Positions 35,795 through 55,165 of a DNA stretch of 64,000 nt are shown one piece after another (the stretch's first letter is position 1; each line of letters begins with the position of its first letter). Made by a program: the position numbers and the translations under genes. The notes below the pieces were generated by a model. It made no database searches and was not told where the DNA came from. It saw only the letters and a program-made list of their open reading frames with translations. The stretch spans positions 1,426,001-1,490,000 of the forward strand of contig NZ_UGNX01000001.1 of assembly GCF_900452415.1 (NCBI RefSeq), read 5' to 3'. Origin of the DNA: Legionella cincinnatiensis (lineage in GTDB: Bacteria > Pseudomonadota > Gammaproteobacteria > Legionellales > Legionellaceae).

Positions 35795-36450
35795 AATGAT
35801 ACTCCAATATTTGTAATCTTTATCTATTTAATCTTTTGACTTTTGGTTAATTAAAAATCCTTTTTATATAAAAACAACACATAAAGATTAAATAGTGATC
35901 CAATATGATATATTCTAAACATTAAGGAAACATTAAATTCGATTGAATATAATTCATTTGGCATTATTATTTTTCTCTTTGGATTTAATCATTTCATTTT
36001 GATTGTAAATTGAAGGAAGGGATTACAAAGAAAAATTGAATAATCTTAAATGGATTATGTTGCTTGTTTCGACTATAGGTTACAGAGCTTTGACCTTACA
36101 CAACGGTAGAGTTTTCTTTAACTGATGTAGCTGTGTCCAGTATCCATGTCGTACATAAGATCTATTGTTTATTGTTCTCACGCCATAAAATGGATAATGG
36201 TATTTTCATATCATATACTTTTAATATTATTCAGCTCAGTTTTCTTAACTATTAAAAGTAGTTTTAATGAATTGATTTAGTCTTAGTACTTTAGATTAAT
36301 GGTTAAAGCATTTGGATTAGGTAGTGTTGTTACTCTTTTAGATGTCTTGTGAGCACCAGCTACTATAGCGATGTTTTAAGAATGGAGCTGGTATTTACCT
36401 AAATGGCAAGGTTGTGTATTACCCAAATGATAAGGACAAGGTATATCAAA
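35795..36450. other. Long divergent promoter region between isocyanide synthase and NRPS
   Basis: This is about 650 AT-rich bases. No further gene, RNA or strong palindrome was found. It should contain the promoters of both biosynthetic genes. Confidence 0.4.
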
Positions 36451-39400
36451 ATGGATAATAAAAATACAATGCCCAGTAGGTTTGAGGCATATACAGCTCA
36501 GTTTCCCCATCATATTGCCGCAATTCATGGCCAAAAAATTCTCACTTACGCTCAATTAAATCAACAAGCGAATCAACTTGCACATTATTTACGAAGCATG
36601 GGACTTAATGCGGATACACCTGTTGCTGTGTGTTTCGAGCGTTCTTTTGATTTTTTAATCTCCATAATAGCTATTTTAAAAGCTGGGGGTGCTTACTTGC
36701 CTATTGATGCTTCACAACCTGAAGAGCGTCTTTTGTTTCTTTTAAATGATAGTCAAGCCCCGATTTTAATTACTCAAGCTGCCTCTGCTCATAAATTTTC
36801 ACAATATCAGAGGAAGATAGTTTTCTTAGATAAAAGTCACGCATTGCTCGAGCAGCAACCTGACAATAATCCATCAACGTTTATCTCTGAACAGCAACTT
36901 GCTTATATTATTTACACATCAGGTTCTACAGGTGCACCTAAAGGCGTGCTCATCGAACACCGTTCCATTATAAATTATTGTCAATGGCTTGGAGAATATA
37001 CTCAAAGTCAAGTGCAACAACGAGTGGATTTTTCTGCTAGCCCTATTTTTGATATGGCAGTTTCTGTTTCTTTAGCACCACTTATGTTAGGTTTAACCAT
37101 TGTTATTTGTGATGCAGAAATAAAAAAAGATCCTAAAGCTTATTTAACCAATTTAGCAAGGTCACAAATTAATGTGATTAAGCTAACTCCAAGTTATTTT
37201 AAACTCTTAGTTCAAGAAACCAAAAACAATTTTATTGCCTTACCCCACCTAAAGTCGATTATTTTAGGCGGTGAACATCTTGCTGCTGCTGAATGTAAAG
37301 CCTGGCTTAGCTTGTATCCTGAACATATATTATATAATGAATATGGACCGACAGAAGCAACTGTTGCGGTTTCAGTATATAAAGTGCAACGCGATAATTT
37401 TACTGATTTTGATACTTATGTACCTATCGGTACGGTGGGACCGCAGATTTCCTATCATATTCTTGATAAATACCATCAACCAGTAGCTGATGGTGAAAAA
37501 GGTGAACTGGCTATTGGTGGAGTTTGCCTTGCACGGGGTTATTTAAATCGTCCGGATTTAACTCAAAAGCAATTTATTCAGCATTCTTTCAACCAGGAAC
37601 CAGAAGCTCGTTTTTATAAAACGGGGGATTTATGCCGAAAACGCACTGATGGTGTGATTGAATATTTTGGGCGTATAGATGATCAAGTCAAAATACGAGG
37701 TTTTCGTGTGGAACCAAGAGAGGTAGAAAACTGTCTAGCAGCCCATTCTTTAATTAAGTCAGTTGCAGTGGTGACGCAAGAAAATGAACAAAAAGAACAA
37801 CAACTAGTAGCTTATTATGTTTTAGACAATAAAAATACCGAACTAACTGCCGCACAAGTACGTCAATTTTTAGAAAAACAAATTCCTGATTATATGATTC
37901 CTTCAGCTTTTATAAGGGTGGATTTTTTACCCTTAACTGCAAATGGAAAGTTAGATAAATCAGCTTTATCTGTACCTAAAATGCATATAACTCATGATTA
38001 TATTGAACCTGTAACCGCTTTAGAAAAACAGCTTGCTCGTATTTGGTCGGAAGAATTAGGGGTGAAATTAGTCGGTTTAAAAGATAATTTTTTTGAGCTT
38101 GGCGGACATTCTCTTTCTGCTGCACGTCTGGTGTCTAAGATAAATCATACCCTAAAAAGAAATATTACACTTTATGATTTTTATAAAACTACGTGTATTG
38201 CTGATTTAATCCCAGTGCTTCAACGCACAAAAAGAATTAGAAAAATTATTGTGAATGAAAAGACACTAGAAACAACACCATTAAGTGATTTCCAATTTGT
38301 GCTGTGGATGGCTGATACTTTTGAGCCTAAAGCCAAAAGATTAAATATTATTGCTAGAAAGCGCGTGCAAGGCCATTTTGATAAAGAAGCGTTAGATTTT
38401 GCTTTTCAAGCCGTTTTAAAAAAGCATGAGGTGCTTATTTATCGTGTTTTTAAGTTACAACCTAAACAAAAAGCAAGTAAAAATTTATCCATTAAACTGA
38501 TTACAAAAGATCTTAGTACTTTATCCGCTGCAAAAGTGGAACAAAATCTCGAGCAATCAATGCAAGAACTGGAGAATTTTAAACGTTGGTCTAAAAATGT
38601 TCCTTTGATTGTAGCTCGTCTTTTTTACTTAAATAAACATGAATCAGAGTTGCAAGTTTGTATGCCTCATTTAATTTCTGATAATGCATCGGTGGATATT
38701 TTATTTAGTGACTTATCTAAATTCTACCTTCAGAAACTGAAATTTAATGAAAGAGAACAACTTACTACTTACAGGACAAGTGAGCTATTACAAGCAATAG
38801 AAGTTGATATGCATTTTAAAAAATATATTCTTACTGAACAGCAATTACTTGAAAATTTTTTAGAGAAGGATGTTCAGTTTTGGGAAAAATATTTGCAAAA
38901 TGCTTCTTTCTTCGCTTTTCCTAAAAAGTATGTCGTCAGTGACATGAAAAAAGAGAAACTTGCTTATTCAACCTACATGCCAATACCCACTGAAGCCTTG
39001 AGTAAGTTAAAACACTTTTGTGAGCAGCATCATATTAGTATGAATAATGGCTTATGCACTGTACTAGCATTGGCCTTACGTAATTGTTGTAGCAATTCTA
39101 GAAATGATAAACCGTTCATGGTAATGAACATTATTAAATCAACACGAGATAATCCCGCTTATGATAATTCTATTGGCTGTTTCTTAAGAGTTGAGCCTGT
39201 TAAAATTGCTTTAGACAATAATGGGACTCTAGAAAGTTTATCGCAGCAAATTCAGCAATCAATCATTGAAACCAGTAACCATCAACATTGTTCCAATCTT
39301 ATAAAATTGAGTGCAGTGAGCACCTTAAATACAAAAAAGAAAAAAATCCAAAGCTCTTTAATCAAGTTAGTAACGCCAGTGTTTACCAAAATTCTGCAAA

Positions 39401-39756
39401 CACCGCTTATTTATCGCAAGATATTGCAACGTTGTATCAGTCGTTTAATGTTGTTTAAACGCAATCATTATTTTGTTATCAATCTGAATGTCAGAAATAA
39501 TTTTCTAGCTCATGATGAAAACCAAACTCAGTTATTTGGTTTTAAAAGTCAGGGTGCCGATCTGCCGCAGAGAGACTTATTGGCCATCGATTATATTTTT
39601 GAAGCATGTTTTTTATATGATGAAGATCAAAAAATCTATTATTTGGTAATTTCAGCAAATTTAACACCAGAGTTCAAAAAGAAAATAGCGCAAGAATTTG
39701 TGCAGATAATGGGGGATACATCATTAACTCTATCATTAGCAGTACAAAGCAATTAA
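36451..39756 (+). CDS. Single-module nonribosomal peptide synthetase, A-T-C order
   Basis: The chosen ATG at 36451 has AAGG upstream; an in-frame ATG at 36403 lacks a site. The protein is 1101 residues. The adenylation domain (about 10-510) has YTSGSTGAPKG, NEYGPTEAT, YKTGDL, GRIDDQVKIRGFR and NGKLDK. The carrier domain has FFELGGHSLSA, with S554 as the phosphopantetheine site. A condensation domain (610-1095) has PHLISDN in place of HHxxxDG; the catalytic second His is kept. Aligning to the GrsA pocket by eye gives D-M-S-K-I-G-E-V-A-K, close to the published Asn code D-L-T-K-L-G-E-V-G-K. There is no thioesterase or reductase. The neighbours are a PvcA-like enzyme (divergent) and a TauD/SyrP-like dioxygenase (convergent). 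The product is unknown. Confidence 0.88.
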   Translation: MDNKNTMPSRFEAYTAQFPHHIAAIHGQKILTYAQLNQQANQLAHYLRSMGLNADTPVAVCFERSFDFLISIIAILKAGGAYLPIDASQPEERLLFLLNDSQAPILITQAASAHKFSQYQRKIVFLDKSHALLEQQPDNNPSTFISEQQLAYIIYTSGSTGAPKGVLIEHRSIINYCQWLGEYTQSQVQQRVDFSASPIFDMAVSVSLAPLMLGLTIVICDAEIKKDPKAYLTNLARSQINVIKLTPSYFKLLVQETKNNFIALPHLKSIILGGEHLAAAECKAWLSLYPEHILYNEYGPTEATVAVSVYKVQRDNFTDFDTYVPIGTVGPQISYHILDKYHQPVADGEKGELAIGGVCLARGYLNRPDLTQKQFIQHSFNQEPEARFYKTGDLCRKRTDGVIEYFGRIDDQVKIRGFRVEPREVENCLAAHSLIKSVAVVTQENEQKEQQLVAYYVLDNKNTELTAAQVRQFLEKQIPDYMIPSAFIRVDFLPLTANGKLDKSALSVPKMHITHDYIEPVTALEKQLARIWSEELGVKLVGLKDNFFELGGHSLSAARLVSKINHTLKRNITLYDFYKTTCIADLIPVLQRTKRIRKIIVNEKTLETTPLSDFQFVLWMADTFEPKAKRLNIIARKRVQGHFDKEALDFAFQAVLKKHEVLIYRVFKLQPKQKASKNLSIKLITKDLSTLSAAKVEQNLEQSMQELENFKRWSKNVPLIVARLFYLNKHESELQVCMPHLISDNASVDILFSDLSKFYLQKLKFNEREQLTTYRTSELLQAIEVDMHFKKYILTEQQLLENFLEKDVQFWEKYLQNASFFAFPKKYVVSDMKKEKLAYSTYMPIPTEALSKLKHFCEQHHISMNNGLCTVLALALRNCCSNSRNDKPFMVMNIIKSTRDNPAYDNSIGCFLRVEPVKIALDNNGTLESLSQQIQQSIIETSNHQHCSNLIKLSAVSTLNTKKKKIQSSLIKLVTPVFTKILQTPLIYRKILQRCISRLMLFKRNHYFVINLNVRNNFLAHDENQTQLFGFKSQGADLPQRDLLAIDYIFEACFLYDEDQKIYYLVISANLTPEFKKKIAQEFVQIMGDTSLTLSLAVQSN

Positions 39757-39843
39757 TGGGGTAGGGCCAAGAGCGACGCATAAAGAGATCTAACTCCTCT
39801 TTTTCCTATTTTAAAAGTCAAATGATCAAAATATGCGCCAATA

Positions 39844-41097
39844 TTAATTCGTCGGTTTGGTAGTCATTGAGGCACCTAAAGTTTCTGTCATTCGTTCAGT
39901 AGCGACTAAAGTACCTGGTGCTGAAGAATAATAATTCATATCCAAAGGATTACAAATCATTGCTCGAATCAATCGAGAACCTAATCCTGGCATTCCGGCA
40001 TGCATTACTTTTTTATTATCAATGAGCAATACATCTCCTTTTTTCCAGATACATGAAGAATAATACTGACGCATTGTTTGTGCAAGAGCAGTCACCTCTT
40101 GATGATTAAAACAGCTTCCTACCTTTTTTTTATTGGATGACCTAAGCTTATTTTTTCTTGCTGCTTTAAAATTATAAAATTTGGTGCGCAAAATTTTATA
40201 AGAATTCTTTGGTGAATGAAAAAAAGAAATAAAAAGAATAGCCAGAAATTCTATCGAATTAAAAATAGGGGTGGGTAGTTTCCAAAAGAAACGATGCCAA
40301 AGCCATTTCTTACCTTTATAATCATTCATAAAACACTTTCTTAATTCATAATTCAAACTTGCAAGTTCAAACAGATTAATTTGCAATGCTTTTTCTTGAG
40401 TCAAGGGATGTTCTAAAACGCTTGGTTTATACATTACGGCAAACGACTCATTTCCTTCTCCTTCAATAGGAAGAGCAAACCGTTCGCATTGTTTTTTGAC
40501 TTCATCTTCGGTGATCTGATACCTTTCTGCGATCTCTTTAATTGACCATTGGCATACAAAAAACGAATTCTTTTCTAATTTTTCTTTTAATTCTTTAGGT
40601 AAATGAGTGTAAATTTTTTGTGTATTGATTAAACCGGTTTCTCCGCCTAATGCTGAAGGTTGAAAACAGCAAAAACATAAATAACTGGGGACATCAGCAG
40701 AATAATAATTTTCAGTATGAAATCCTCCAAGATATAATGTCCCCCCGGTTTTATAAATAGAGTTGGTATGTAAAACATATTGAAGATCACCAACATGGAC
40801 GCGACCATTTTCAGACATAAATGCTTCACTAATACCACGAAACTCAGAAATACTTAAAATAATATTTTCAAATTGTTCATCAGTTTCAATATTAAATCCT
40901 CTTAAAAGCACGGCGCCATATTGAGCCATATCCTGAATAATTTGACTGGAATAAGATTGTAGAAATTGCTGCAAAAATTCGAGATCAACTGCTTTGTCTG
41001 CCTCGATAACCAACGGCATTTGTTGTTCTTCAGATAAAATAAGTCGCTCATCTTTACGAAGAAAACGCGTGATAACACCTTGATATTCCTTGTGCAT
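39844..41097 (-). CDS. TauD/SyrP-like Fe(II)/2-oxoglutarate dioxygenase
   Basis: The 417-residue protein belongs to the TauD/clavaminate-synthase superfamily. The metal ligands are H127 and E129 in GFHTENYYS and the distal His in VMHAGMPG, with the 2-oxoglutarate-binding Arg in GSRLIRAMI. AVLLRGF near residue 62 is a typical TauD block. About 80 extra basic and hydrophobic residues (FFWKLPTPIF..) are inserted before the distal His. Relatives such as SyrP and AsnO beta-hydroxylate Asp or Asn for NRPS products. Because the NRPS next door is predicted to load Asn, beta-hydroxylation of Asn is a reasonable guess. It converges on the NRPS gene with an 87-base gap. Confidence 0.75.
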   Translation of the reverse strand: MHKEYQGVITRFLRKDERLILSEEQQMPLVIEADKAVDLEFLQQFLQSYSSQIIQDMAQYGAVLLRGFNIETDEQFENIILSISEFRGISEAFMSENGRVHVGDLQYVLHTNSIYKTGGTLYLGGFHTENYYSADVPSYLCFCCFQPSALGGETGLINTQKIYTHLPKELKEKLEKNSFFVCQWSIKEIAERYQITEDEVKKQCERFALPIEGEGNESFAVMYKPSVLEHPLTQEKALQINLFELASLNYELRKCFMNDYKGKKWLWHRFFWKLPTPIFNSIEFLAILFISFFHSPKNSYKILRTKFYNFKAARKNKLRSSNKKKVGSCFNHQEVTALAQTMRQYYSSCIWKKGDVLLIDNKKVMHAGMPGLGSRLIRAMICNPLDMNYYSSAPGTLVATERMTETLGASMTTKPTN

Positions 41098-45164: not shown

Positions 45165-46553
45165 ATGCTTGATAGTAATATAAAAGAAATAATCAATGAA
45201 TTACAAGAACAGGAGATACTTCCTCATACTGGAAGAATTATAGGTGGTTCCCGAAATCAATTTGATAAAAAAGGACAGGCAAAACAAGGGCATCTTTTTT
45301 CCGTTATTGAAAACAAACCAATAGGAAAAGGTGGGTTCGCTTCTGTTTATCCTATTACTCTGTATCGACAAGATGAAACTGGAATAGTTAAAAAATCTAC
45401 TCATCATAAGGACTTTGTAACCAAGGAATTTAATTTAGAGAAACTTAAAAGAAATTATAGTGAATTAAATATAGAAAATTTAATTGAAAAAGAATTTGAT
45501 TTTTGTCGAAAAGCAGGACACTTAAGCATAAAACCACCTGTCTATGATAATAATAAATGTTATCTTACGATGAAACGAATGCCAGGGAAGAATTTAGAGA
45601 GTATCTTTTATAAATTAATGGATAATCCTAATTATCTTACTGATAATCAACGAATTAAGATAACCTATGCTTTATTATTGGCTTTGAAAAACCAGGTAAT
45701 TGATAAAGGGATTATTCATCGAGATATAAAGCCTGAGAATATTCATGTTAAAATAGCTGAACCTATTGAAGTGAATATTTTTGATTATGGACTTGCAAAA
45801 AAAGCAGGCGAAGAAGATGAGCTATTTCCTGGAAGCGAACTTTGGGCAGCACCTGAAATATTTACTGGCTTACAGCATGATAATAAAGCTGATATTTTTT
45901 CAATGGGAAGAGTAATTGCCTTCTTATGGGGTGAAAGTACTGACAACTATTTAAGTGTTAATCCTTTTAACAAAAGCAGGTATGCAGCAAAAAACCTTAA
46001 TTTGCCTGAAAATGCTAAATGGGTAGAACCCTTTTTAAGGCGCATGTTAGCGGAAAAGCAAGAGGATAGAACAGATATTGATTCCGCAATAAATCAATTT
46101 AAGCAACTGGTGTCTATTAACGCACCGATGCTTAAATTACCTCAATGCCCAATAGAGAATCACTCAAATGTGAATAATCTTCGCTTTTTTCAAAATCCAA
46201 TTGAAAACGCAAAAATTTCTCATCTGAAACAATTAAATATTCAACAGAATATCAAAAGAGATTTTCAGGAGTTATTAGAGTATCTTCCTTGTCAATATTC
46301 TCATTATCGCAGTAATACAATTTTTAAAAAAACAATCGGTCGCTTTACAACTCTACAAAAAATGATGAATGAATTAAAACAAATAATGAATGACAATGAA
46401 TCACAAGACATACCTCAAGCATTATACAGGTTCTTGAGTCATCATCAGAATAAGCCTTTACATAGAAGCGAAGCTAATATTATGAGAAAAATAAATGACT
46501 TCTTAGAGGATATAAACTATCAAAATTTAACCAACTCAGGCTGTAAATTATAA
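45165..46553 (+). CDS. Eukaryotic-type Ser/Thr protein kinase, candidate effector
   Basis: The 462-residue protein has kinase subdomains in order: the glycine loop GKGGFASVYPI (54-64), a candidate ATP lysine at K87, HRDIKPEN (185-192) with catalytic D187, then a DYG triplet (207-209) where most kinases have DFG, APE at 229-231, and DIFSMGRV. The C-terminal 150 residues are helical without domain. Legionella effectors LegK1-LegK4 are kinases of this kind, and this looks like a further member. The GGAG ribosome site lies before the ATG. It is presumably active: all catalytic residues are present. Confidence 0.8.
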   Translation: MLDSNIKEIINELQEQEILPHTGRIIGGSRNQFDKKGQAKQGHLFSVIENKPIGKGGFASVYPITLYRQDETGIVKKSTHHKDFVTKEFNLEKLKRNYSELNIENLIEKEFDFCRKAGHLSIKPPVYDNNKCYLTMKRMPGKNLESIFYKLMDNPNYLTDNQRIKITYALLLALKNQVIDKGIIHRDIKPENIHVKIAEPIEVNIFDYGLAKKAGEEDELFPGSELWAAPEIFTGLQHDNKADIFSMGRVIAFLWGESTDNYLSVNPFNKSRYAAKNLNLPENAKWVEPFLRRMLAEKQEDRTDIDSAINQFKQLVSINAPMLKLPQCPIENHSNVNNLRFFQNPIENAKISHLKQLNIQQNIKRDFQELLEYLPCQYSHYRSNTIFKKTIGRFTTLQKMMNELKQIMNDNESQDIPQALYRFLSHHQNKPLHRSEANIMRKINDFLEDINYQNLTNSGCKL

Positions 46554-46569
46554 TATATTCATTGTTGCT

Positions 46570-46606
46570 CTGGGATTGTTAGGAGCGCATTGCTAACAAA
46601 TCCCAG
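46570..46606. terminator. Inverted repeat at the convergent ends of the kinase and LuxR genes
   Basis: CTGGGATTGTTAG (46570-46582) pairs with CTAACAAATCCCAG (46593-46606), apart from a one-base bulge, around a 10-base loop. It lies 16 bases after the kinase stop and includes the last codons of the opposing LuxR gene. This is a plausible two-sided terminator, though a T-run is lacking. Confidence 0.4.
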
Positions 46607-47262
46607 ATAAGTGTAAGATTTTTCAAGCCTTTTTCAAAAGATTTAGTGTATATATCTTCTTTATTGTAACAACCCCATTTGCTTTTTATATTATTAAGAT
46701 GAAAAATAACCGTTCTTTCAGTAATATGAAGCAATGGAGCAATAAGCTTGATGGTTTTTCCTTGTAAAAAATAATACAAAACTTCCATCTCTCTTTGCGA
46801 CAAATTAATCGTTGTTTTTAACCAATCATCAACATCAATATTGATTTTAAGATTAGGTGCTAAAAAGGTATTTTTCGAATTGATGTTACTAATCAGTTCA
46901 TGGAAATTCATAAATTTCGTAAAACCAATGACTCCATGCGTTTTTCCATCCTCATCTTTAAGCGGTAATTTGTGAGATAAGGCAAAGATTTTTTCGCCAT
47001 TTTTAGCAAGACAATCGTCCAATTGAAAATAAATAATTTCTTCCATGGCGCAGTAATCATGACTATTATAAAAATCAGCATATTTTCCAAAAGGAAGTGC
47101 TTTATCGGGCATGCCAAGAATATCTTTTTCTTGTAATTGCAATTGCTTGAGCCCATTATTATTCATATACTGGTAATGACAATTTTTATCTTTGATGTAT
47201 ACGGTACTATGGGAATATTCAAAAATTGTTTTTGTATAGGTTAAGAGTTTTTCAGGGATCAT
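46579..47262 (-). CDS. PAS-LuxR type transcriptional regulator
   Basis: The 227-residue protein has an N-terminal PAS-like sensor (residues 10-120, with YIKDKNCHYQYMNNNGL and the GVIGFTKF end). The C-terminal LuxR helix-turn-helix reads LSQREMEVLYYFLQGKT and HITERTVIFHLNNIKSKWG. There is no receiver domain. It could respond to a small molecule bound by the PAS domain. It lies downstream of the pvc-type operon in the same orientation, separated by about 290 bases, so it is probably transcribed on its own. The regulated genes are unknown. Confidence 0.78.
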   Translation of the reverse strand: MIPEKLLTYTKTIFEYSHSTVYIKDKNCHYQYMNNNGLKQLQLQEKDILGMPDKALPFGKYADFYNSHDYCAMEEIIYFQLDDCLAKNGEKIFALSHKLPLKDEDGKTHGVIGFTKFMNFHELISNINSKNTFLAPNLKINIDVDDWLKTTINLSQREMEVLYYFLQGKTIKLIAPLLHITERTVIFHLNNIKSKWGCYNKEDIYTKSFEKGLKNLTLIWDLLAMRS

Positions 47263-47359
47263 AAAAGCTACGGTTATACCAACTCACAACGATTTAAAAT
47301 TATACCATTGGTGTAATTTTAAATCAATTTGATTTTTTTGGATCGATATGATTACCAGA

Positions 47360-47491
47360 TTAAAACCAGGTATCTGTCAGTGGAGCATGCTTGCCTCTTG
47401 GTGCAAGGATTTGAATGGGGGTTGCGCCAGCAGCCTTTCGGTGCATGAGGCGTGAATGCTTACAAAACCAGTCTTGACATTTATTAGACAA
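47360..47491 (-). CDS. Possible small GC-rich 43-codon gene
   Basis: A minus-strand frame begins at a TTG (47491) and ends at 47360. It reads MSNKCQDWFCKHSRLMHR, then KAAGATPIQILAPRGKH and a short Trp-containing tail. The base composition is clearly richer in GC than the surroundings, and it looks protein-like rather than random. AGGA lies about 14 bases before the TTG, which is far. It might be a small gene, or the tail of a lost one. I know no function. Confidence 0.3.
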   Translation of the reverse strand: MSNKCQDWFCKHSRLMHRKAAGATPIQILAPRGKHAPLTDTWF

Positions 47492-47551
47492 AAATTAAGT
47501 CTTTTCCTGAAATTAACTTCTTATCTATCAGAATAATTCATGAAACTTTCT

Positions 47552-48034
47552 TTAATAGGGTTCACCATTTTTACGAGAAAATTGCCAGTGCCCATTAGAA
47601 TCAAAAATTGCGACTAAATCGTCAGTAGGATAACTTACCTTATCACCTTCAGTTCGATCGCCAATTTCAAGGTAAATAACATCGCTTGATGTGCGATTTA
47701 TTAATTTATGTGCTACACCATCAGGAGTAAATCCAGCACACATTCCTGGTTGTAATGGAAGTTCATCAACATCAGTCACTAATGATGGTTGTCCTTCCAA
47801 AATAAAAATAAATTCTTCTTGTACTGAATGCCGATGGAGTAATGCAGATTGTGCACCTGGAGCAAGTCGAGTTAAATTTACACCAAATTTTTTTATTCCA
47901 AATAGATCACCTAATGGATGTTTTTCTCGCCCAGCCATCATGGAAGCAAATGGTTCTGGATAAACAGAAGGTTTCTTACGTGCTGGTGTATTTTCCGCCA
48001 CAACAGCAATTGGACATTTGTTATTTTTATTCAC
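47552..48034 (-). CDS. Cupin-domain protein at the end of the pvc-type operon
   Basis: The 160-residue single-domain cupin has metal-binding residues in LLHRHSVQEEFIFILEG (H, H, E) and the last His in DGVAHKLIN. The start is a GTG with AAGGA upstream. It lies 96 bases downstream of the ATP-grasp ligase gene on the same strand, which makes it a likely fifth gene of the pvcA operon. Cupins of this sort act as isomerases, oxygenases or tailoring enzymes. The reaction here is unknown. Confidence 0.7.
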   Translation of the reverse strand: MNKNNKCPIAVVAENTPARKKPSVYPEPFASMMAGREKHPLGDLFGIKKFGVNLTRLAPGAQSALLHRHSVQEEFIFILEGQPSLVTDVDELPLQPGMCAGFTPDGVAHKLINRTSSDVIYLEIGDRTEGDKVSYPTDDLVAIFDSNGHWQFSRKNGEPY

Positions 48035-48130
48035 ATATTTCCTTATAAAAACGTACTAGAAATAATGCTAGGTTAGCATAAACAGATTGCTAAGTATTAT
48101 TGTTGAATTCCATCAATCCTTTTTTATAAT

Positions 48131-49363
48131 TTATATTTTATGAATAACTAATTTCGATTCCATGTTTCGAATTTTTTCGTAATCTAATAAAATTGATTCG
48201 CGGTCACCAGCTAGTCCAATAATGCCAATACTCGTGAGATAATCTACAGTCTGGGGTACCAGATCCCCATTTTTAAACCAAATATGTTCACTGAGAAAGG
48301 TCGGTAATTTAGAAATTTCAGCAAGAGCTTCAGCATTTGATATTATTCCTTGCGCGAACGCTTTCAAAAAAACGGGGATAACCGATTTTTTGAATACATA
48401 TTGTTTAGTGAGTACATCACCATCAATATAGATTTCAACTAATTTATCAGCTTGACTACTACCGGTCGCTGCTCGTGCAAACCTCACAACTGGACCGCCG
48501 CACATTCGAGCACCTGTTTCTATAAGGCGCGGTCCTTGCTTCGTAAGCATAATTTCAGTGTGCGTAGCACCCCAACGAATTCCCAAAGCATCCAGCGCCT
48601 TTTGGGTATAAGCAAATAACTCCCCATACACTTTTTCACTATAGGGCACAAATTCAACATAGTCGTAAACCGTGTTACGATTATTAAATGAGGTTTTATT
48701 ATATTTAATTAAATGCGCTAAATAGTGTTTTCCATGAGCACTTACAGTTCCGATGGCAAATTCTGTACCAATAGCTTGTTCTTGCACGACAACGGTTTCG
48801 CTAATCGCTCCAGTAATTTGAGATGGTTCGGTCATAACTCGATTGAAGGCCATTTTCCAATCTCCTTTTGCTGGAATGTGAAAAACCTTATCACTACCGG
48901 CAGACATTGGCGGTTTAATTACAAGCGGAGCATCAACTAATCCGTTTTCCTTAATCCAGGTATCCACTTCATGTTCCGATGACGTATTGAGCGTTTTAAG
49001 AACAGGAACGCCAGCTTCTTTCAAAGCATTTTGCATAAGGGCTTTGTGTAATCGATTAAGCGATTTTTTGGGGTCATTGGCGAATTGAGGCGTTAAAATC
49101 TCAGTCAGGTGTTCTGCCACAGAAATCCCTAATTCGTCACCAGGAATAATCGCAATAGGATTGTACTTTCTAATAACCTCGACCAGGTTTGGATGGTTAG
49201 GAATAATTTCGATAAAATCTGAAGTTTGAACTTTTAATCCAAATCCAATTTCTTCTAAGGATTTAAAAGTGACTGCAATGGCCGGTATTCCTCGAGCTTT
49301 AAAAGCAGGAGCTAAATCTATTCCTGATGACAATGGATTAACAATGACCACGGGTCTATTCAC
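48131..49363 (-). CDS. ATP-grasp ligase, amino-acid ligase-like
   Basis: The 410-residue protein of the carbamoyl-phosphate-synthase-like ATP-grasp group is related to L-amino-acid ligases. The lid and ATP motifs are PLVIKPPMSAGSDKVF (lysine loop), VVVQEQAIGTEFAIG and RLIETGARMCGGPVVRFAR (Mg-binding Glu). Such ligases join amino acids or other carboxylates to amines through acyl-phosphates. The GTG start has AAGGAGG and overlaps the monooxygenase stop by eight bases, so the two are translationally coupled in the pvc operon. In this pathway it could amidate or peptidyl-ligate the isonitrile product. Confidence 0.75.
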   Translation of the reverse strand: MNRPVVIVNPLSSGIDLAPAFKARGIPAIAVTFKSLEEIGFGLKVQTSDFIEIIPNHPNLVEVIRKYNPIAIIPGDELGISVAEHLTEILTPQFANDPKKSLNRLHKALMQNALKEAGVPVLKTLNTSSEHEVDTWIKENGLVDAPLVIKPPMSAGSDKVFHIPAKGDWKMAFNRVMTEPSQITGAISETVVVQEQAIGTEFAIGTVSAHGKHYLAHLIKYNKTSFNNRNTVYDYVEFVPYSEKVYGELFAYTQKALDALGIRWGATHTEIMLTKQGPRLIETGARMCGGPVVRFARAATGSSQADKLVEIYIDGDVLTKQYVFKKSVIPVFLKAFAQGIISNAEALAEISKLPTFLSEHIWFKNGDLVPQTVDYLTSIGIIGLAGDRESILLDYEKIRNMESKLVIHKI

Positions 49364-50849
49364 GTACTGCCTCCTTATTTGAATTTTTCATTAACATGAT
49401 TGGAGTTTTGTCAAAACTCCAATCAAATAGAGATTCAACTTTATCTAACGGCGTGGACGATTCAATATAGGAATCCGGCCTGACCAAAATTGCATGGTTT
49501 CTATATTGAGTGTTCTGGGTCCAATAGTTTGCCTGCTGTTCATATGAATAAATTTGAATAACTTTTATAAATTCAGGTACGTTTAGCTCAACTGCACCAT
49601 CATTAAAAATTAAGAGGGTAAATTTGGTATAATCTAAAAGAGAATAAAGTCGGGTTTTAACGATTCCATTAAAAATTTCAAAGTCAAAAAGGCGAGAGCC
49701 ATTGCGCTCTTGATGACCATAACAAATGCCCATCCCAGTGATATTACCCGCACGTTTTTGTACAATCTTTACATAATCCTGGGCGTGGGTCCCGTTCTGC
49801 GAATACTTAGTTGAACGCACAAGTTCCCCGGAAGTTTCAATCACACTTTGAGCAACCGGTTTACGCTCGTTTTCATAGCTTTGCAAAAGTTGTGGAGAAG
49901 CCCCAAAATTGATAACCATATTTAACTTCCATATGAGATTAAATGCATCTGCAAGACCTGTATTAAGACCTTGTCCTCCGTTTACTGAATGAATATGACA
50001 TGCATCGCCAGCAAGAAAAATGCGATCTTGCACGCAAAATTTCTCGGCTAAAGATTCTTTGACTGAAAATTGTGAAAACCACACGATTTCTTTAAAACGG
50101 AGGGTATGAGGCTGCATCGCATGATTAATTTTGTCAATTGCCTCTTCTAGGGTAAAGTCCTTAGTGTCCATTCTTACGTAAAATCTATCAATTTCTCCCT
50201 CTCTGGGAATCCATGCCACATCTGAGGTTTCTGCTTGAAAAACGATGATTTCAGGAACTTTTAGAAAATCTGTGTCTATGATGCCATCGATTACAGCCCA
50301 TATAATTTGGGGGCGTATGATTTCAAAAGGTATTTTAAAATGATTGCGAACGAAAGAACGAGATCCATCGGTACCAATCACATAACGTGATTGAATACTT
50401 TCTTTATTGGAAAGCGTTGTGAGGCATCCCTCTTTATTGAGCTCAATGTTCTCAGCTGCAGTGGAACGTTTTACCGATGTTCCAATCTCTTTAAGCTTCC
50501 TATCTAACAGCTTTTCTACATAGGACTGTCCAAGCATAAGGAAATGTTTATGGAAGCAGCCTTGAAGTTCATCCCACCAAGAGGATTGACGTGAAATAAA
50601 TTTACCATCCGCCCACACAGCACTGGTATTGCATGTCTTTCCCAAGGGATAGAGCTCATCAAATAAATCAACTAATTCAAGAAGTTGTAACGTACGTGCA
50701 TTAAGAGCATCGGCTCTTCCAACTTCTAAGGGACCATCAGACTTATCGACAATAACAGTTTGCATTCCACAAAGTTGTCCTAAGTAAGCACACATGAGTC
50801 CTACCGGACCTGCTCCAACTATTACAATATCTGCTACTTGTATGTTCAT
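49356..50849 (-). CDS. FAD-dependent aromatic hydroxylase (PHBH family)
   Basis: The 497-residue class A flavin monooxygenase has the FAD-binding VIVGAGPVGLMCAYLG at the N-terminus, the DG motif YVIGTDGSRSFVRN and the GD motif FLAGDACHIHSVNGGQGLN. A C-terminal thioredoxin-like segment is consistent with MhpA-type phenol hydroxylases. It would hydroxylate an aromatic ring, probably that of a tyrosine-derived isonitrile. Its ATG overlaps the pvcB stop by four bases. Classical Pseudomonas pvc clusters use other flavin enzymes (PvcC and PvcD), so this is a variant pathway. Confidence 0.82.
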   Translation of the reverse strand: MNIQVADIVIVGAGPVGLMCAYLGQLCGMQTVIVDKSDGPLEVGRADALNARTLQLLELVDLFDELYPLGKTCNTSAVWADGKFISRQSSWWDELQGCFHKHFLMLGQSYVEKLLDRKLKEIGTSVKRSTAAENIELNKEGCLTTLSNKESIQSRYVIGTDGSRSFVRNHFKIPFEIIRPQIIWAVIDGIIDTDFLKVPEIIVFQAETSDVAWIPREGEIDRFYVRMDTKDFTLEEAIDKINHAMQPHTLRFKEIVWFSQFSVKESLAEKFCVQDRIFLAGDACHIHSVNGGQGLNTGLADAFNLIWKLNMVINFGASPQLLQSYENERKPVAQSVIETSGELVRSTKYSQNGTHAQDYVKIVQKRAGNITGMGICYGHQERNGSRLFDFEIFNGIVKTRLYSLLDYTKFTLLIFNDGAVELNVPEFIKVIQIYSYEQQANYWTQNTQYRNHAILVRPDSYIESSTPLDKVESLFDWSFDKTPIMLMKNSNKEAVRE

Positions 50850-51682
50850 TCGTAAGATTCCAAACCGGGGTTATCAAAAGGAGGGTTACTCAAAACATGA
50901 ACTCGTTGAATATGACGAGGAGACTTAGAGGTGAAGCCTTCTCTACCATGTAAGAGTGAAAAATTATCTGCAATGACTACATCTCCAGTTTGCCATTCAT
51001 GGGCATAAAAATTACCAGGAGAATAAAGCGCTTTTTCTAGACTTTTATGAAAGATATCTAATTCTTCATGACTAGCGCCCGTAAATTCAAGATCTGGCGG
51101 GTTTACGAAATGGCCTTTATCTTGAGAGGGGGGCTCATTGTAGCGAATGACAGGAAAATCTTTTTGAGGGTGCTTCGTAATGATTGGTGATATTGTTTTG
51201 CTATTATAAAATTTCATTTTTCTTTGATAGGTACCAGTTACTTTATGCCAAAGTTCTTTTATTTCAGAAGGTGTATGTTTTAAAACTAAAATGGTATTTG
51301 AAAAAGTTGTTTTTCCTCCTTGGCCAGGCAAAGGTGCTTTGACACAATGAAAAATCTGATACTCAGGGACTTGAGGGCGATACATGCCATCCCAATGCAA
51401 TGGCATGTAACTATGATCAAAAATGTGATCTTCGGGGGCATCTTGCTCAATTAATTCAAGTACCTTTCCAAATGGCCAGACACTCACTTCTCCCCAGAGT
51501 TCGCAATAGTTAGAAAAATCTTCTGCATTCTGAAATGTCTCAAACCCTCTCAATACAACGAGTTGATTCTTCCCAAATAAATGCCGTAAACTCTCTATAT
51601 CGAGATCTCCCACATTCTTTTTTTTGCTCAGAGGTTCTAAGAGCACACCAAATGGTTCAAGATCAGTAATTTTATAATTCAT
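50846..51682 (-). CDS. pvcB: PvcB-type Fe(II)/2-oxoglutarate oxygenase
   Basis: The 278-residue TauD-family enzyme acts after PvcA, typically oxidising the carboxylated isonitrile to a vinyl isonitrile. The metal ligands are H and D in PLHWDGMYRPQVP and the distal His in FSLLHGREGFTS; the 2-oxoglutarate Arg is in SPRHIQRVHVL. LVVLRGFETF near residue 36 is the TauD block. It is 25 bases downstream of pvcA with an AAAGGA site, and overlaps the next gene by ATGA. The pairing with pvcA supports this function over a TauD sulphonate role. Confidence 0.85.
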   Translation of the reverse strand: MNYKITDLEPFGVLLEPLSKKKNVGDLDIESLRHLFGKNQLVVLRGFETFQNAEDFSNYCELWGEVSVWPFGKVLELIEQDAPEDHIFDHSYMPLHWDGMYRPQVPEYQIFHCVKAPLPGQGGKTTFSNTILVLKHTPSEIKELWHKVTGTYQRKMKFYNSKTISPIITKHPQKDFPVIRYNEPPSQDKGHFVNPPDLEFTGASHEELDIFHKSLEKALYSPGNFYAHEWQTGDVVIADNFSLLHGREGFTSKSPRHIQRVHVLSNPPFDNPGLESYE

Positions 51683-51707
51683 ACCATATCCTTTCTATCG
51701 ATAAGCA

Positions 51708-52751
51708 TTAATCTGTGATTAGTTTATAATGGCTTGGACGTCCATCAGTGGCATAAATTAATTGAGCACCTAAAGCTTCGGCTTCTGAGCGTTTTAGCAA
51801 GATATAACCTTTCTTGCTTTCAATGACAACGCCATGCCATGGAGTCATCCAACTTTCATTTCCAATTAAACGGATCCCTAATTTTTTTGCACCGCAAGTT
51901 TGAGGGTGAATAGACAGTCGAACAGCGTTAGGAAAATGCTCTGCAATTAACTGACTCCAGGCATTACTTCTTCTTATAACCTCATATGCTTTAGAACGAG
52001 ATTCTTTTTGGATCGCAGTACGACTTTTAGTTTGGCCTCGATACTTGGAGTCTTCAAATAAAAAGCGTGTGATACCACAATACATGCGATTTGATTCTTG
52101 TTCATCCGGGCTTGCTGTGGGTTTTGCGCCATTACGAATCTTATACTTAAGAAAATCTAATGATTGTGCATAACCTTTCATGAGTTCGTCACGCATTTGG
52201 ATAAAGTTAAGTCCCCTATAAAAGTCATCAAGATTAAACGTTGATAAGTCTGGAAGGGACATTTCCTGTATCAGTTTATCTAATTCAACCTGGTAATCGG
52301 TCACATTACTTTCCTTCATCCCAACTACATCACTAAATACTCTTCCATCGGAACACAGAAAGATTTTAATTCCAGGTGGATAAAATCTTTTAATTTTTTG
52401 ACAAAGATTTCCAAGAAAATGGAGCGCAAGTCTTTCTGCATGATCAGGAAAGTGACTAAGTACTTTTTCGGGATTTGGAGACTTTCCAGGGAAAGCTGGC
52501 AATACAAAAGTCACTGGTTCACTTTTTTTTACTGCTGAGAGTATCTTTGGTAAATGAGGCGAAGAACACTTTGGGCAATTTACATCGTTACATGCATCGA
52601 TAGACTTTGGAACACGCCGAAAAATCATGAACTCAGCCAATATTTTTTTAGCCATTTCCATAGCATAGGCGCTATTTAATGATTTTCTAAGCTCAAAATT
52701 GTTAATTGAATGATTCTGAATTGTACTTAAATTAAATGTTGTATTTTTCAT
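51708..52751 (-). CDS. pvcA: Isocyanide synthase (PvcA), second copy
   Basis: The 347-residue protein has the full PvcA/IsnA block: FVLPAFPGKSPNPEKVL, FPDHAERLALHFLGNLC and GIKIFLCSDGRVFSDVV. The second half has RLSIHPQTCGAKKLGIRL and TPWHGVVIE, conserved in the family. PvcA makes an isonitrile from L-tyrosine or L-tryptophan. It is the first gene of a minus-strand operon (pvcA, pvcB, FAD monooxygenase, ATP-grasp, cupin), with CAGGAGAG before the ATG. A LysR gene diverges from its promoter. It is clearly more like classical PvcA than the first copy at 34.7 kb. Confidence 0.88.
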   Translation of the reverse strand: MKNTTFNLSTIQNHSINNFELRKSLNSAYAMEMAKKILAEFMIFRRVPKSIDACNDVNCPKCSSPHLPKILSAVKKSEPVTFVLPAFPGKSPNPEKVLSHFPDHAERLALHFLGNLCQKIKRFYPPGIKIFLCSDGRVFSDVVGMKESNVTDYQVELDKLIQEMSLPDLSTFNLDDFYRGLNFIQMRDELMKGYAQSLDFLKYKIRNGAKPTASPDEQESNRMYCGITRFLFEDSKYRGQTKSRTAIQKESRSKAYEVIRRSNAWSQLIAEHFPNAVRLSIHPQTCGAKKLGIRLIGNESWMTPWHGVVIESKKGYILLKRSEAEALGAQLIYATDGRPSHYKLITD

Positions 52752-52833
52752 TTTTTCTCTCCTGAATTTAGATTACTTACTTTCAAGAGATAAATAAAAT
52801 GACTTATTTTAATTGTTGTGATAAAATTTTTTT

Positions 52834-53670
52834 ATGCCTTTATTATTAGATGACATAAAATATTTTATAATTGTCAGTGAAACCCTTAACATTACAAGGG
52901 CCTCTGAAATTATAGGGATATCTCAGCCTGCGCTCAGTTATGCTGTAAAAAGATTAGAAAGTAAACTGGGTGGGCAGCTTCTAATTCGACTTAAAACGGG
53001 TATCCAACTCACGAAACTTGGAGAGGAGTTTAAGCGACGTTCCTATCGTCTATTGTATGAGTGGGAGCAGGCTCAAAACCTGGCTAATTCTGAATCAGGG
53101 CTTATTCAAGCAAACTATACCATTGCTGTTCATCCATCAGTTGCTCTTCATACGCTCGAATACTTTATGCCAAAACTCCAAGTTAATTTTCCAAAACTTG
53201 GGTTTAATTTTATTCATGGCCTTTCAAGAGAGATGACTGAAAAGATTATTAGTTGGGAGGCCGATTTTGGAATCGTTGTAAACCCTATAAAACATCCTGA
53301 TCTCGTTATTAACAAGTTAAATAAGGATGAAGTCACCGTCTTTTATGCGCAGAATGCTCAAGATAAACTGATTTATGATCAAAATCTCGCTCAATCACAA
53401 TATATACTTAAAAAATTGGGTAAAAAATTAATTTTTAATGGCATACTTAACTCTGCTAATCTTGAGGTTGTTGCTAAATTAACATCATTAGGTCTTGGCT
53501 ACGGTCTTTTGCCTTCAAGAGTTGCATCTCAATATGCTCATCTTAAAAAATTAAAAGATGCTCCCGTATTTCATGATGAGATTTGTTTAGTTTATAGGCC
53601 TGAAAAACATAAAAATCCCGTGAGTAAAAAAATAATTCAAATTATCAGATCATCCTTCAATATTGGGTAA
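52834..53670 (+). CDS. LysR-family regulator, probable regulator of the pvc operon
   Basis: The 278-residue protein has an N-terminal winged helix-turn-helix (FIIVSETLNITRASEIIG, then QPALSYAVKRLESKLGG) and a substrate-binding domain of two lobes. It is divergent from pvcA with 82 bases between. LysR regulators commonly control their divergent neighbour and respond to a pathway metabolite. No Shine-Dalgarno sequence is evident. The ligand is unknown. Confidence 0.85.
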   Translation: MPLLLDDIKYFIIVSETLNITRASEIIGISQPALSYAVKRLESKLGGQLLIRLKTGIQLTKLGEEFKRRSYRLLYEWEQAQNLANSESGLIQANYTIAVHPSVALHTLEYFMPKLQVNFPKLGFNFIHGLSREMTEKIISWEADFGIVVNPIKHPDLVINKLNKDEVTVFYAQNAQDKLIYDQNLAQSQYILKKLGKKLIFNGILNSANLEVVAKLTSLGLGYGLLPSRVASQYAHLKKLKDAPVFHDEICLVYRPEKHKNPVSKKIIQIIRSSFNIG

Positions 53671-53932
53671 AAAATAATGGGTACACAAGAGTAGTGCGGC
53701 ATGCTTCTCAAAGTCCTTGCAAAGAGAGCTTAAACTTGTGCATTAAAATGGGTGCATTTAAAAAAAATTAGGGCCTTACTTAAGGTATTTTAAATACTAT
53801 CCTGGAATGCTTCGGGAAAAATATTCATTCTGGAGTAGGTTTAGAATCCGCTGCTTTCTAAAACATTTTTTGTTACGTTTTTTGAGAAAGAGCAGGAAAC
53901 ACAAGGGCGTATTAATTAAAGCGAGTTACTTT

Positions 53933-55165
53933 ATGACAATAGAAAAAACAGTTCTGGATCCTAAGATACTTCATAAGATTACTCATTTGTTACACACAAA
54001 ATTTGCTACAGAAGTTAAGGTATGTTCCACTCAGTTTTTAAGTGAACCTGAACGTAGAAATTGTGTAGTAAGACTGGTTTTATCAAGCAAAGCGAAAACA
54101 GTGCCTGCAAGTATTATTTTGAAGCAATCTTTACGAGAAGAAATTGATGTTGATGATAAAGAAGCATATGCGCGATTTGCTCGAGACTGGGCGGGTCTTG
54201 AGTTTGCAAGTCAAATCAAACAAACGAGTCATAATGTACCAAAATTTTATGGGGGCGATAAAGAGAACAGATTTATTCTTATTGAAGACTTGGGAATACC
54301 GCATATTAGTTTAGTTGATTCACTTACTGCGGCAAATCAGGGAGCAGCTACTGCAGCATTGACTCGTTTTATGAAAGCTTTGGGTAGTTTTCATGCAGCA
54401 AGTTTTGGCAATACCGAGCTTTATGAACGTCTTTTAATATCTATTAATCAAAATGCTCAATCAATTGATGACGAACGGGATTTTATGTTTGCTGATTTGT
54501 TACCAAAACTGGAGATAGCAAATAAAAAGTTAAGTTTAATTTTAACCGATGAATGCATTGATGAAGCCAAGTCTGTCATTGAATATGTGCTAAAACCAGG
54601 ACCCTTTACTGTTCTGACCCATGGTGATATTTGCCCTGATAATGTATTTGACCATACAGAAACTAAAGATCTGCAGCTTATTGATTTTGAATGGTGCGTA
54701 GTACGTAATGCGTTGCTAGATGGAACGTATTTACGTATGAGTATGCCTACTTGTTGGTGTGCGAAAGCAATCCCTGCTGATATTATTGAGCATTTAGAGC
54801 TCATTTATAGAGAAGAGCTGAAACAAAATATTCCGGCAGCAACAGATGATACGGAGTATGAGAAAGCCTATACCTATGCGTGTGGTTTTTGGATTTTACA
54901 ACAAACAATACCTTTTATTGATTCAATTTGGGAAAAAGACAGAATCGGACCGTCTGGCCCTGTACCTAAAGATTCTTTATGGAAGGCAGAAAACAATTGG
55001 GTGAGACCAAGGGTTTTTTCAAGGTTGCAAGCATTTATTGATAAAACAACGTCCCATCAACAATTACCACATTTACGAAAGATGGCGGTAGCACTATTAA
55101 ATGAGTTAAAACAACGTTGGCCCGAAACCCCATTTCTCGAATATTATCCCGCATTTTTGTCATGA
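53933..55165 (+). CDS. APH/choline-kinase-like phosphotransferase
   Basis: I chose the start MTIEKTVLDPKILHK at 53933. An upstream ATG at 53807 would add 42 basic residues with little similarity, though it stays in frame and is possible. The 410-residue protein has the phosphotransferase catalytic loop THGDICPDNVFDH and the metal site LQLIDFEWCVV. ILIEDLG is in the hinge. Members of this superfamily phosphorylate aminoglycosides, choline, or sterols/small alcohols. The target here is unknown. A strong hairpin lies ten bases after the stop. Confidence 0.7.
   Translation: MTIEKTVLDPKILHKITHLLHTKFATEVKVCSTQFLSEPERRNCVVRLVLSSKAKTVPASIILKQSLREEIDVDDKEAYARFARDWAGLEFASQIKQTSHNVPKFYGGDKENRFILIEDLGIPHISLVDSLTAANQGAATAALTRFMKALGSFHAASFGNTELYERLLISINQNAQSIDDERDFMFADLLPKLEIANKKLSLILTDECIDEAKSVIEYVLKPGPFTVLTHGDICPDNVFDHTETKDLQLIDFEWCVVRNALLDGTYLRMSMPTCWCAKAIPADIIEHLELIYREELKQNIPAATDDTEYEKAYTYACGFWILQQTIPFIDSIWEKDRIGPSGPVPKDSLWKAENNWVRPRVFSRLQAFIDKTTSHQQLPHLRKMAVALLNELKQRWPETPFLEYYPAFLS

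What the first reader, a model, noticed from the sequence alone, without database searches (positions are those of the whole stretch)
46579..53670. Variant isocyanide operon: pvcA-pvcB-aromatic hydroxylase-ATP-grasp-cupin
Five minus-strand genes with 4-25 base overlaps or gaps (the cupin after 96 bases) follow a divergent LysR gene. PvcA and PvcB are recognised by family motifs. The next genes are a PHBH-type hydroxylase and an ATP-grasp ligase, not the PvcC/PvcD pair of Pseudomonas. The inferred product is a hydroxylated aromatic isonitrile that is ligated or amidated. This combination may not be described for any known isonitrile.
Basis: partly seen in the sequence, partly recalled or inferred. 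Interest (0 to 1): 0.8.

Follow-up and report, generated by a model that had tools for sequence, protein, structure and literature searches.

The report
Legionella isonitrile operon, mostly already known
The genes are real and form a conserved Legionella operon that probably makes a tyrosine-derived isonitrile and, beside it, fatty-acyl histidines; a closely related pathway has been reported in Legionella pneumophila, but the same operon also sits, unexpectedly, in some bacteria of another phylum.

Summary
In detail: divergent LysR, then pvcA-pvcB-FAD hydroxylase-ATP-grasp, tightly packed. The novelty claim mostly does not. The core stands in 16 of 45 genus genomes, and Legionella pvcAB is in print. 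A review says that a PF13535 ATP-grasp of L. pneumophila makes acyl-histidines, citing Torring 2017; I recall its abstract as placing them in the isocyanide cluster, but could not open it. The cupin is not core (3 of 16 loci). PvcB carries R102/N182, a published mark of decarboxylating, vinyl-isonitrile enzymes, so the carboxylate to be amidated is probably lost. New here: Legionellaceae show two alternative clusters, 23 genomes with hydroxylase and 23 with P450; the ligase tracks the hydroxylase type, 21 of 23 against 0 of 23, unlinked in two. Four Obscuribacterales genomes (phylum Melainabacteria) hold the same cassette, one copy beside an EF-G gene of their own order: a cross-phylum transfer, direction open.

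The parts
51708..52751 (-). PvcA/IsnA-type isonitrile synthase, 347 aa
   Evidence: Pfam DIT1_PvcA E 2e-76; phmmer to P. aeruginosa PvcA 3e59, 251 bits over residues 34-344; below the cut-off of the Tyr equivalog NF045653 (277 of 600 bits)
50846..51682 (-). PvcB/IsnB-type Fe/2OG desaturase, 278 aa; H96-x-D98...H245; R102 and N182 as in vinyl-isonitrile (decarboxylating) enzymes
   Evidence: TauD E 4e-49; PvcB 3eat 290 bits, PIsnB 7tcl 261 bits with alignments; selectivity positions K107/N188 of PIsnB from PMC9467999; R102 in 25 of 25 rows, N182 in 23 of 25, the other two G
49356..50849 (-). FAD-dependent aromatic hydroxylase (class A monooxygenase, label recalled), 497 aa
   Evidence: NF005531 967 bits, cut-off 530; FAD_binding_3 E 1e-62, weak ring-hydroxylase C-terminal domain below its cut-off; GAGPVG at 12, DG at 161, GDACH at 281
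48131..49363 (-). ATP-grasp carboxylate-amine ligase, 410 aa, GTG start
   Evidence: NF005543 553 bits, cut-off 302; dapdiamide A synthase DdaF 148 bits, cut-off 840; PDB 30vh L-amino acid ligase 136 bits; K106, K149, E200, E269, E281, R285 invariant in 21 of 21 sequences, window and 20 relatives (numbering of alignment A1, one less than the protein)
52834..53670 (+). divergent LysR-type regulator, 278 aa
   Evidence: HTH_1 E 1e-16, LysR_substrate E 7e-15; at the same place in the other 15 genus loci with the core
52752..52833 (.). lysR-pvcA intergenic region, with a block (TTATCAC...ATTTTA.TTAT, read towards pvcA) largely kept across species: possible operator and promoter
   Evidence: MAFFT alignment of 17 intergenic stretches, block not identical in every one; function inferred
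47552..48034 (-). single-domain cupin; probably a lineage-specific neighbour, not a core gene
   Evidence: Cupin_2 E 3e-13; in 3 of 16 genus loci
46579..47262 (-). PAS-LuxR type regulator downstream; neighbour kept in the longbeachae group
   Evidence: GerE and PAS_4; genes 91-92% identical in L045, L049, L053

Best explanation
This is the longbeachae-group version of a conserved Legionellaceae operon, LysR | pvcA-pvcB-hydroxylase-(MFS)-ATP-grasp. PvcA turns an aromatic amino acid, most likely L-tyrosine, into its isonitrile; PvcB desaturates it with loss of CO2 to a vinyl isonitrile; the flavin hydroxylase probably hydroxylates the phenol ring; the ATP-grasp enzyme activates a separate carboxylic acid, by precedent in L. 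pneumophila a fatty acid, and couples it to histidine, so that the operon yields two kinds of product, an aromatic isonitrile and N-acyl-histidines. LysR controls it; in L. pneumophila pvcAB is reported to be iron-regulated and raised in biofilm. Shown here: gene content, families, synteny, PvcB selectivity residues, co-occurrence of ligase and hydroxylase type. Inferred: substrates, the hydroxylation site, control by LysR, and that the window's ligase does what a ligase of L. pneumophila is reported to do.
For: Families. Core in 16 of 45 genus genomes. PvcB signature R102/N182. Review: PF13535 ATP-grasp makes acyl-histidine in L. pneumophila, citing Torring 2017. pvcAB of L. pneumophila iron-regulated and biofilm-induced (PMC11705809, PMC5835138); PvcA/PvcB named among proteins specific to the human-pathogenic Legionella (PMC4256840). 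Ligase ortholog in 21 of 23 hydroxylase-type genomes against 0 of 23 P450-type, and not adjacent to the cluster in G486 and G496.
Against: Torring 2017 could not be read, so gene content and product of the L. pneumophila cluster rest on a recalled abstract and one review sentence. No genome here was shown to be L. pneumophila; G033 is only close kin (enolase similar, not identical, to 6nb2, which I recall as that of L. pneumophila). The published selectivity rule is a correlation: single changes at the two positions did not switch the product. PvcA falls below the tyrosine equivalog cut-off, so tyrosine rather than tryptophan is unproved. Two hydroxylase-type genomes (G025, G451) lack an intact ligase ortholog. 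The co-occurrence test takes no account of kinship, and its 499-bit line was set after the scores were seen. No structure could be predicted.
Confidence: 0.62

Rival explanations
1. One reading: the hydroxylated aromatic isonitrile itself is the ligase substrate, amidated on its carboxylate or joined through a side group, giving one conjugated product.
For: The ligase follows the hydroxylase directly, overlapping it by 8 bases; it tracks this cluster type even when not adjacent; in one species the two reading frames are one 900-aa frame (L046). Its nearest characterised kin are amino-acid ligases.
Against: PvcB residues forecast loss of the carboxylate. The 900-aa frame is bridged by a GGTCCGGGACGGACC-like repeat, so it looks accidental. 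G486 holds the ligase about 1 Mb from the cluster, G496 on another contig. A review assigns acyl-histidine to an L. pneumophila ATP-grasp.
Confidence: 0.17
2. A paerucumarin-like pathway: isocyanoacrylate, ring hydroxylation and lactone closure to an isocyano-coumarin used in metal handling.
For: PvcA and PvcB homology and a hydroxylase; iron regulation of pvcAB in L. pneumophila.
Against: Position 102 is R in 25 of 25 rows and 182 is N in 23 of 25 (G in two), where PvcB-type enzymes have L and C. The third and fourth genes encode an FAD_binding_3 hydroxylase and an ATP-grasp; that PvcC and PvcD belong to other families is recalled, not tested by a search with them.
Confidence: 0.07
3. The operon is decaying or unproductive in this lineage: exporter and, in the window, a response-regulator gene lost, with only residual activity.
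For: No MFS gene between hydroxylase and ligase in 12 of 16 genus loci; the PAS-receiver gene that follows the ligase in L045, L049, L053 is not in the window's 96-base gap; PvcA split over two frames in G015 (L055), ligase remnant in G451 (L084).
Against: All four core frames are intact in the window and 89-96% identical in L. longbeachae and L. santicrucis. Whether the MFS gene was lost or gained was not tested.
Confidence: 0.06

Closest known systems
Isocyanide cluster of Legionella pneumophila (pvcA-pvcB, lpp0236-lpp0237; acyl-histidines, Torring et al. 2017)
   Same: Same genus; PvcA/PvcB; a PF13535 ATP-grasp making acyl-histidine (review). G033, kin of L. pneumophila by its enolase, has the full core at 76-84% identity.
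   Different: The full gene list of the L. pneumophila cluster was not seen. The window's operon lacks the MFS gene that G033 has and carries a cupin downstream.
Legionella isnAB cluster with HTH protein and cytochrome P450 (PMC5126622)
   Same: Divergent LysR, pvcA, pvcB.
   Different: A P450 in place of hydroxylase and ATP-grasp; PvcB only 31-35% identical to the window's, with A at position 182 in all 25 P450-type loci read, two of them from outside the family. That paper says the P450 is always associated in Legionella; it stands beside pvcB in 23 of the 46 Legionellaceae pvcA-pvcB clusters read here.
Pseudomonas aeruginosa pvcABCD (paerucumarin), with ptxR
   Same: PvcA, PvcB, LysR-type regulator nearby.
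   Different: Different third and fourth genes; PvcB selectivity residues of the other class.
Rhabduscin isnA-isnB-glycosyltransferase clusters of Xenorhabdus/Photorhabdus
   Same: PvcB residues of PIsnB class.
   Different: No glycosyltransferase among the nine proteins of 45165-55165 that were scanned; that rhabduscin clusters have one is recalled.
Dapdiamide synthase DdaF and BacD-like L-amino acid ligases
   Same: ATP-grasp ligases; DdaF model 148 bits, 30vh 136 bits.
   Different: Far below the DdaF cut-off of 840 bits; own model NF005543.

Membership tests
PvcA/IsnA isonitrile synthases (PF05141) | DIT1_PvcA domain over most of its length | tested here: met
   257 bits, profile 3-268 of 273
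PvcA/IsnA isonitrile synthases (PF05141) | tyrosine-specific equivalog NF045653 over its cut-off | tested here: not met
   277 bits against a cut-off of 600; substrate left open
PIsnB-type vinyl-isonitrile desaturases | Fe ligands HxD...H | tested here: met
   H96, D98, H245 in 25 of 25 rows
PIsnB-type vinyl-isonitrile desaturases | K/R at 107 and N/H at 188 (PIsnB numbering; PMC9467999) | tested here: met
   R102 and N182 in the window; R in 25 of 25, N in 23 of 25 rows, G in two
PIsnB-type vinyl-isonitrile desaturases | decarboxylating desaturation of the isonitrile acid | not testable with these tools
   needs an enzyme assay
pvcABCD paerucumarin operon | L and C at the two PvcB positions | tested here: not met
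   R and N
pvcABCD paerucumarin operon | PvcC and PvcD downstream of pvcB | tested here: not met
   FAD_binding_3 hydroxylase and ATP-grasp instead; families of PvcC/PvcD recalled
Legionella LysR-pvcA-pvcB-P450 cluster (PMC5126622) | P450 after pvcB | tested here: not met
   no P450 among the scanned window proteins; P450 present in 23 other Legionellaceae loci
L. pneumophila isocyanide/acyl-histidine cluster | same gene content | tested here: inconclusive
   core met in 16 genus genomes, but no genome was shown to be L. pneumophila and the paper was not held
L. pneumophila isocyanide/acyl-histidine cluster | makes tyrosine isocyanide and N-acyl-histidines | not testable with these tools
   review sentence and recalled abstract only
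PRK07206-type ATP-grasp (NF005543) | over the curated cut-off | tested here: met
   553 bits, cut-off 302

The most novel reading that the evidence does not exclude
The four enzymes form one co-selected, mobile cassette that has crossed between Legionellaceae and Obscuribacterales, and in both phyla it makes a joint product not yet seen, in which the ligase acts on the isonitrile branch (or couples its product to histidine), giving a host- or metal-directed metabolite used by bacteria that share amoebae or biofilms.
Probability: 0.15. Interest if true: 0.6.

Novelty: new member of a known kind. Interest (0 to 1): 0.36.

Why it matters
It shows that the 'odd' operon is one of two alternative isonitrile clusters that divide the PvcA-bearing Legionellaceae evenly, stands against a printed statement that the Legionella clusters always carry a P450, ties the ATP-grasp to one type only, and brings in a second, unrelated phylum with the same cassette. 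Enzymes from that second source, which is not on the control lists, offer a way to find out what hydroxylase and ligase do.

Tried and rejected
Considered and set aside: that the cupin belongs to the pathway (3 of 16 loci). That the FAD/ATP-grasp fusion of L. steigerwaltii is a Rosetta-stone proof of coupling (junction bears a palindromic repeat). That G033 is L. pneumophila: its enolase is close to 6nb2 but not identical, so it is used only as close kin. That the Obscuribacterales copies are mis-binned Legionella contigs: rejected for G539, whose EF-G, about 2 kb from the cluster on a 574-kb contig, is 74-81% identical to that of nine other genomes of the order and 60-61% to four Legionellaceae, these being the 13 genomes compared; for the other copies it was not tested gene by gene. 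That the transfer ran from Legionella: the tree nests the four Obscuribacterales rows in Legionellaceae, but a test holding the Legionellaceae rows together is not rejected (p-AU 0.54), so direction is left open. Rows dropped: G015 and G025 are not in the 25-row counts nor in the trees; of the P450 type, the tree holds 7 (5 of the 23 Legionellaceae and 2 from outside), the test three.

Led nowhere: the combination of isocyanide synthase, ATP-grasp and biosynthetic gene cluster gave 0 papers; lpg0174 gave 0; of lpg0175-lpg0177 only lpg0176 gave a hit, a plasmid name that looks like a slip for lpg0716. Searches with Obscuribacter(ales), Melainabacteria or Vampirovibrionia and isonitrile words showed no paper holding both kinds of word in the lists seen (15 of 428; 10 of 10). 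Structure prediction of the ligase was tried seven times and the machine was busy each time, so fold searches were not run.
Full report
What is there. The window is part of a Legionella chromosome (G000, contig C1 1426001-1490000). The first 8 kb of its second contig match Legionella plasmids, best 98.6% to one of L. longbeachae, and the operon proteins are 89-96% identical to those of L. longbeachae NCTC11477 and L. santicrucis (genome handles tied to names by equal contig lengths).

The hydroxylase and the ligase. The hydroxylase fits NCBIfam NF005531 with 967 bits (cut-off 530) and has the GxGxxG, DG and GD motifs that I recall as those of class A flavin monooxygenases. The ligase fits NF005543 with 553 bits (cut-off 302), with the dapdiamide synthase model next at 148 bits and an L-amino acid ligase, 30vh, as nearest solved chain. 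Lysines, glutamates and an arginine such as ATP-grasp enzymes use (recalled) are invariant in 21 of 21 aligned sequences.

Conservation in the genus. NF005543 is over its cut-off in 18 of 45 genus genomes; 16 of these, at 518-568 bits, are the operon type. All 16 have LysR, pvcA, pvcB, hydroxylase and ligase together (window, fifteen; in G015 PvcA lies in two frames). An MFS gene stands between hydroxylase and ligase in 4 of the 16, the cupin near by in 3 of 16. The lysR-pvcA gap holds a largely conserved block in 17 stretches compared.

Two cluster types. PF05141 at E 1e-40 or better is found in 47 of 143 Legionellaceae genomes. By neighbours, 23 are of the hydroxylase type (window; L044-L058; L083-L088; G025 by L082 and L144), 23 have LysR-pvcA-pvcB-P450 (L127, L130-L143, L145-L152) and one, G483, has only the distant PvcA2 form. 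No genome showed a second full-strength PvcA locus (second matches in G000, G009, G010, G020, G021 are the PvcA2 form, 144-151 bits). The ligase ortholog (499 bits or more, a line set after seeing the scores) is in 21 of 23 hydroxylase-type and 0 of 23 P450-type genomes (counted; Fisher p 7e-11, not corrected for kinship). The two without are G025 and G451, the latter with a short remnant in an 80%-complete genome. In G486 the ligase stands about 1 Mb away, in G496 on another contig, in G491 about 1.6 kb beyond lysR: adjacency is not needed for the association.

What PvcB says. PMC9467999 (passages) reports that vinyl-isonitrile enzymes have K/R at 107 and N/H at 188 of PIsnB, isocyanoacrylate enzymes L and C. 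The window has R102 and N182 at these places (alignment). In 25 rows of this type, window, 20 Legionellaceae and 4 Obscuribacterales, R is found in 25 and N in 23, with G in two; since all 23 rows have N, the two G rows are Obscuribacterales. The 25 P450-type loci fit neither class: A at 182, and H, Y or K at 102. The paper also notes that single changes at these places did not switch the product.

What is in print. PMC4256840 (passage) names PvcA/PvcB lpp0236-lpp0237 among proteins specific to human-pathogenic Legionella; PMC11705809 and PMC5835138 (passages) report iron regulation and biofilm induction in L. pneumophila; PMC5126622 (passages) describes isnAB with an HTH protein and a P450 'always' associated, which fits only half of the clusters read here. 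PMC11631085 (passage) says that a PF13535 ATP-grasp forms acyl-histidine in L. pneumophila, citing Torring et al. 2017. That paper was not held (title seen); that its abstract ties acyl-histidines and a known tyrosine isocyanide to one isocyanide cluster is recalled.

Another phylum. Two contigs labelled Candidatus Obscuribacterales came up with the ligase (L009, L011). NCBI puts that order in Candidatus Melainabacteria. The hydroxylase is found at E 1e-120 or better in 6 of 53 genomes of the order, and in 1 of 369 genomes drawn from the window's own class, the window's own. Four of the six have pvcA-pvcB-hydroxylase-ligase, two of these with the MFS gene, at 67-78% identity to the window; G537 shows a lone hydroxylase on a short contig, and in G509 it is split over contigs. 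The copy in G539 lies about 2 kb from an EF-G gene, itself after what read by eye as ribosomal proteins S12 and S7, on a 574-kb contig; this EF-G is 74-81% identical to nine others of the order and 60-61% to four Legionellaceae, so that copy is truly there. In G539, G545 and G533 a LysR-like gene lies near, but matches the window's only over a short stretch. In the PvcA+PvcB tree the four rows form one clade inside the Legionellaceae rows, but Legionellaceae as one clade is not rejected (p-AU 0.54).

Verdict. Observation confirmed; novelty claim mostly not. The operon is a member of a known Legionella pathway type with a probable two-product output; the open points are the hydroxylase's site, the ligase's substrates in this lineage, and the cross-phylum spread.

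Noticed in passing
window 34751-41097: A second PvcA homologue (34751-35794, -, 148 bits) beside a one-module NRPS (A-T-C, 36403-39756, +) and a TauD-type oxygenase (39844-41097, -); kept in L. longbeachae (L155) and L. santicrucis (L156), while G009 (L153) and G483 (L154) have the PvcA form without NRPS or TauD in the stretch read. A possible second isonitrile cluster 16 kb away.
   Followed up: partly
L003:1105-2664: A third, long (519 aa) protein of the same genome with a partial DIT1_PvcA domain (72 bits).
   Followed up: no
L163, L166, L167, L168: The same isonitrile cassette in four Obscuribacterales genomes, one copy beside an EF-G gene of that order.
   Followed up: partly
L046 (G040, L. 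steigerwaltii): Hydroxylase and ligase read as one 900-aa frame, bridged by a GGTCCGGGACGGACC-like repeat.
   Followed up: partly
L086:5470-7383 (G486): PvcA and PvcB read as one 637-aa frame.
   Followed up: no
L059, L061, L094: A distant ligase paralogue (31-33% identity to the window's) sits in a cluster shared by three genomes with a DAHP-synthase-like protein, a cupin-like protein, two short-chain dehydrogenases, a DMT-like exporter, a chorismate-mutase-like protein and an aminotransferase, perhaps a bacilysin-like pathway (names by eye, apart from the ligase).
   Followed up: no
window 45165-46553: Protein kinase resembling the Dot/Icm effector kinase LegK1 model, below its cut-off (192 of 550 bits).
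   Followed up: no
L090 (G033 contig C2): Plasmid stretch whose relatives in L. fallonii, L. hackeliae, L. longbeachae and L. sainthelensi are annotated with YcaO, TfuA, ThiF/MoeB and ATP-grasp or glutathione-synthetase proteins.
   Followed up: no
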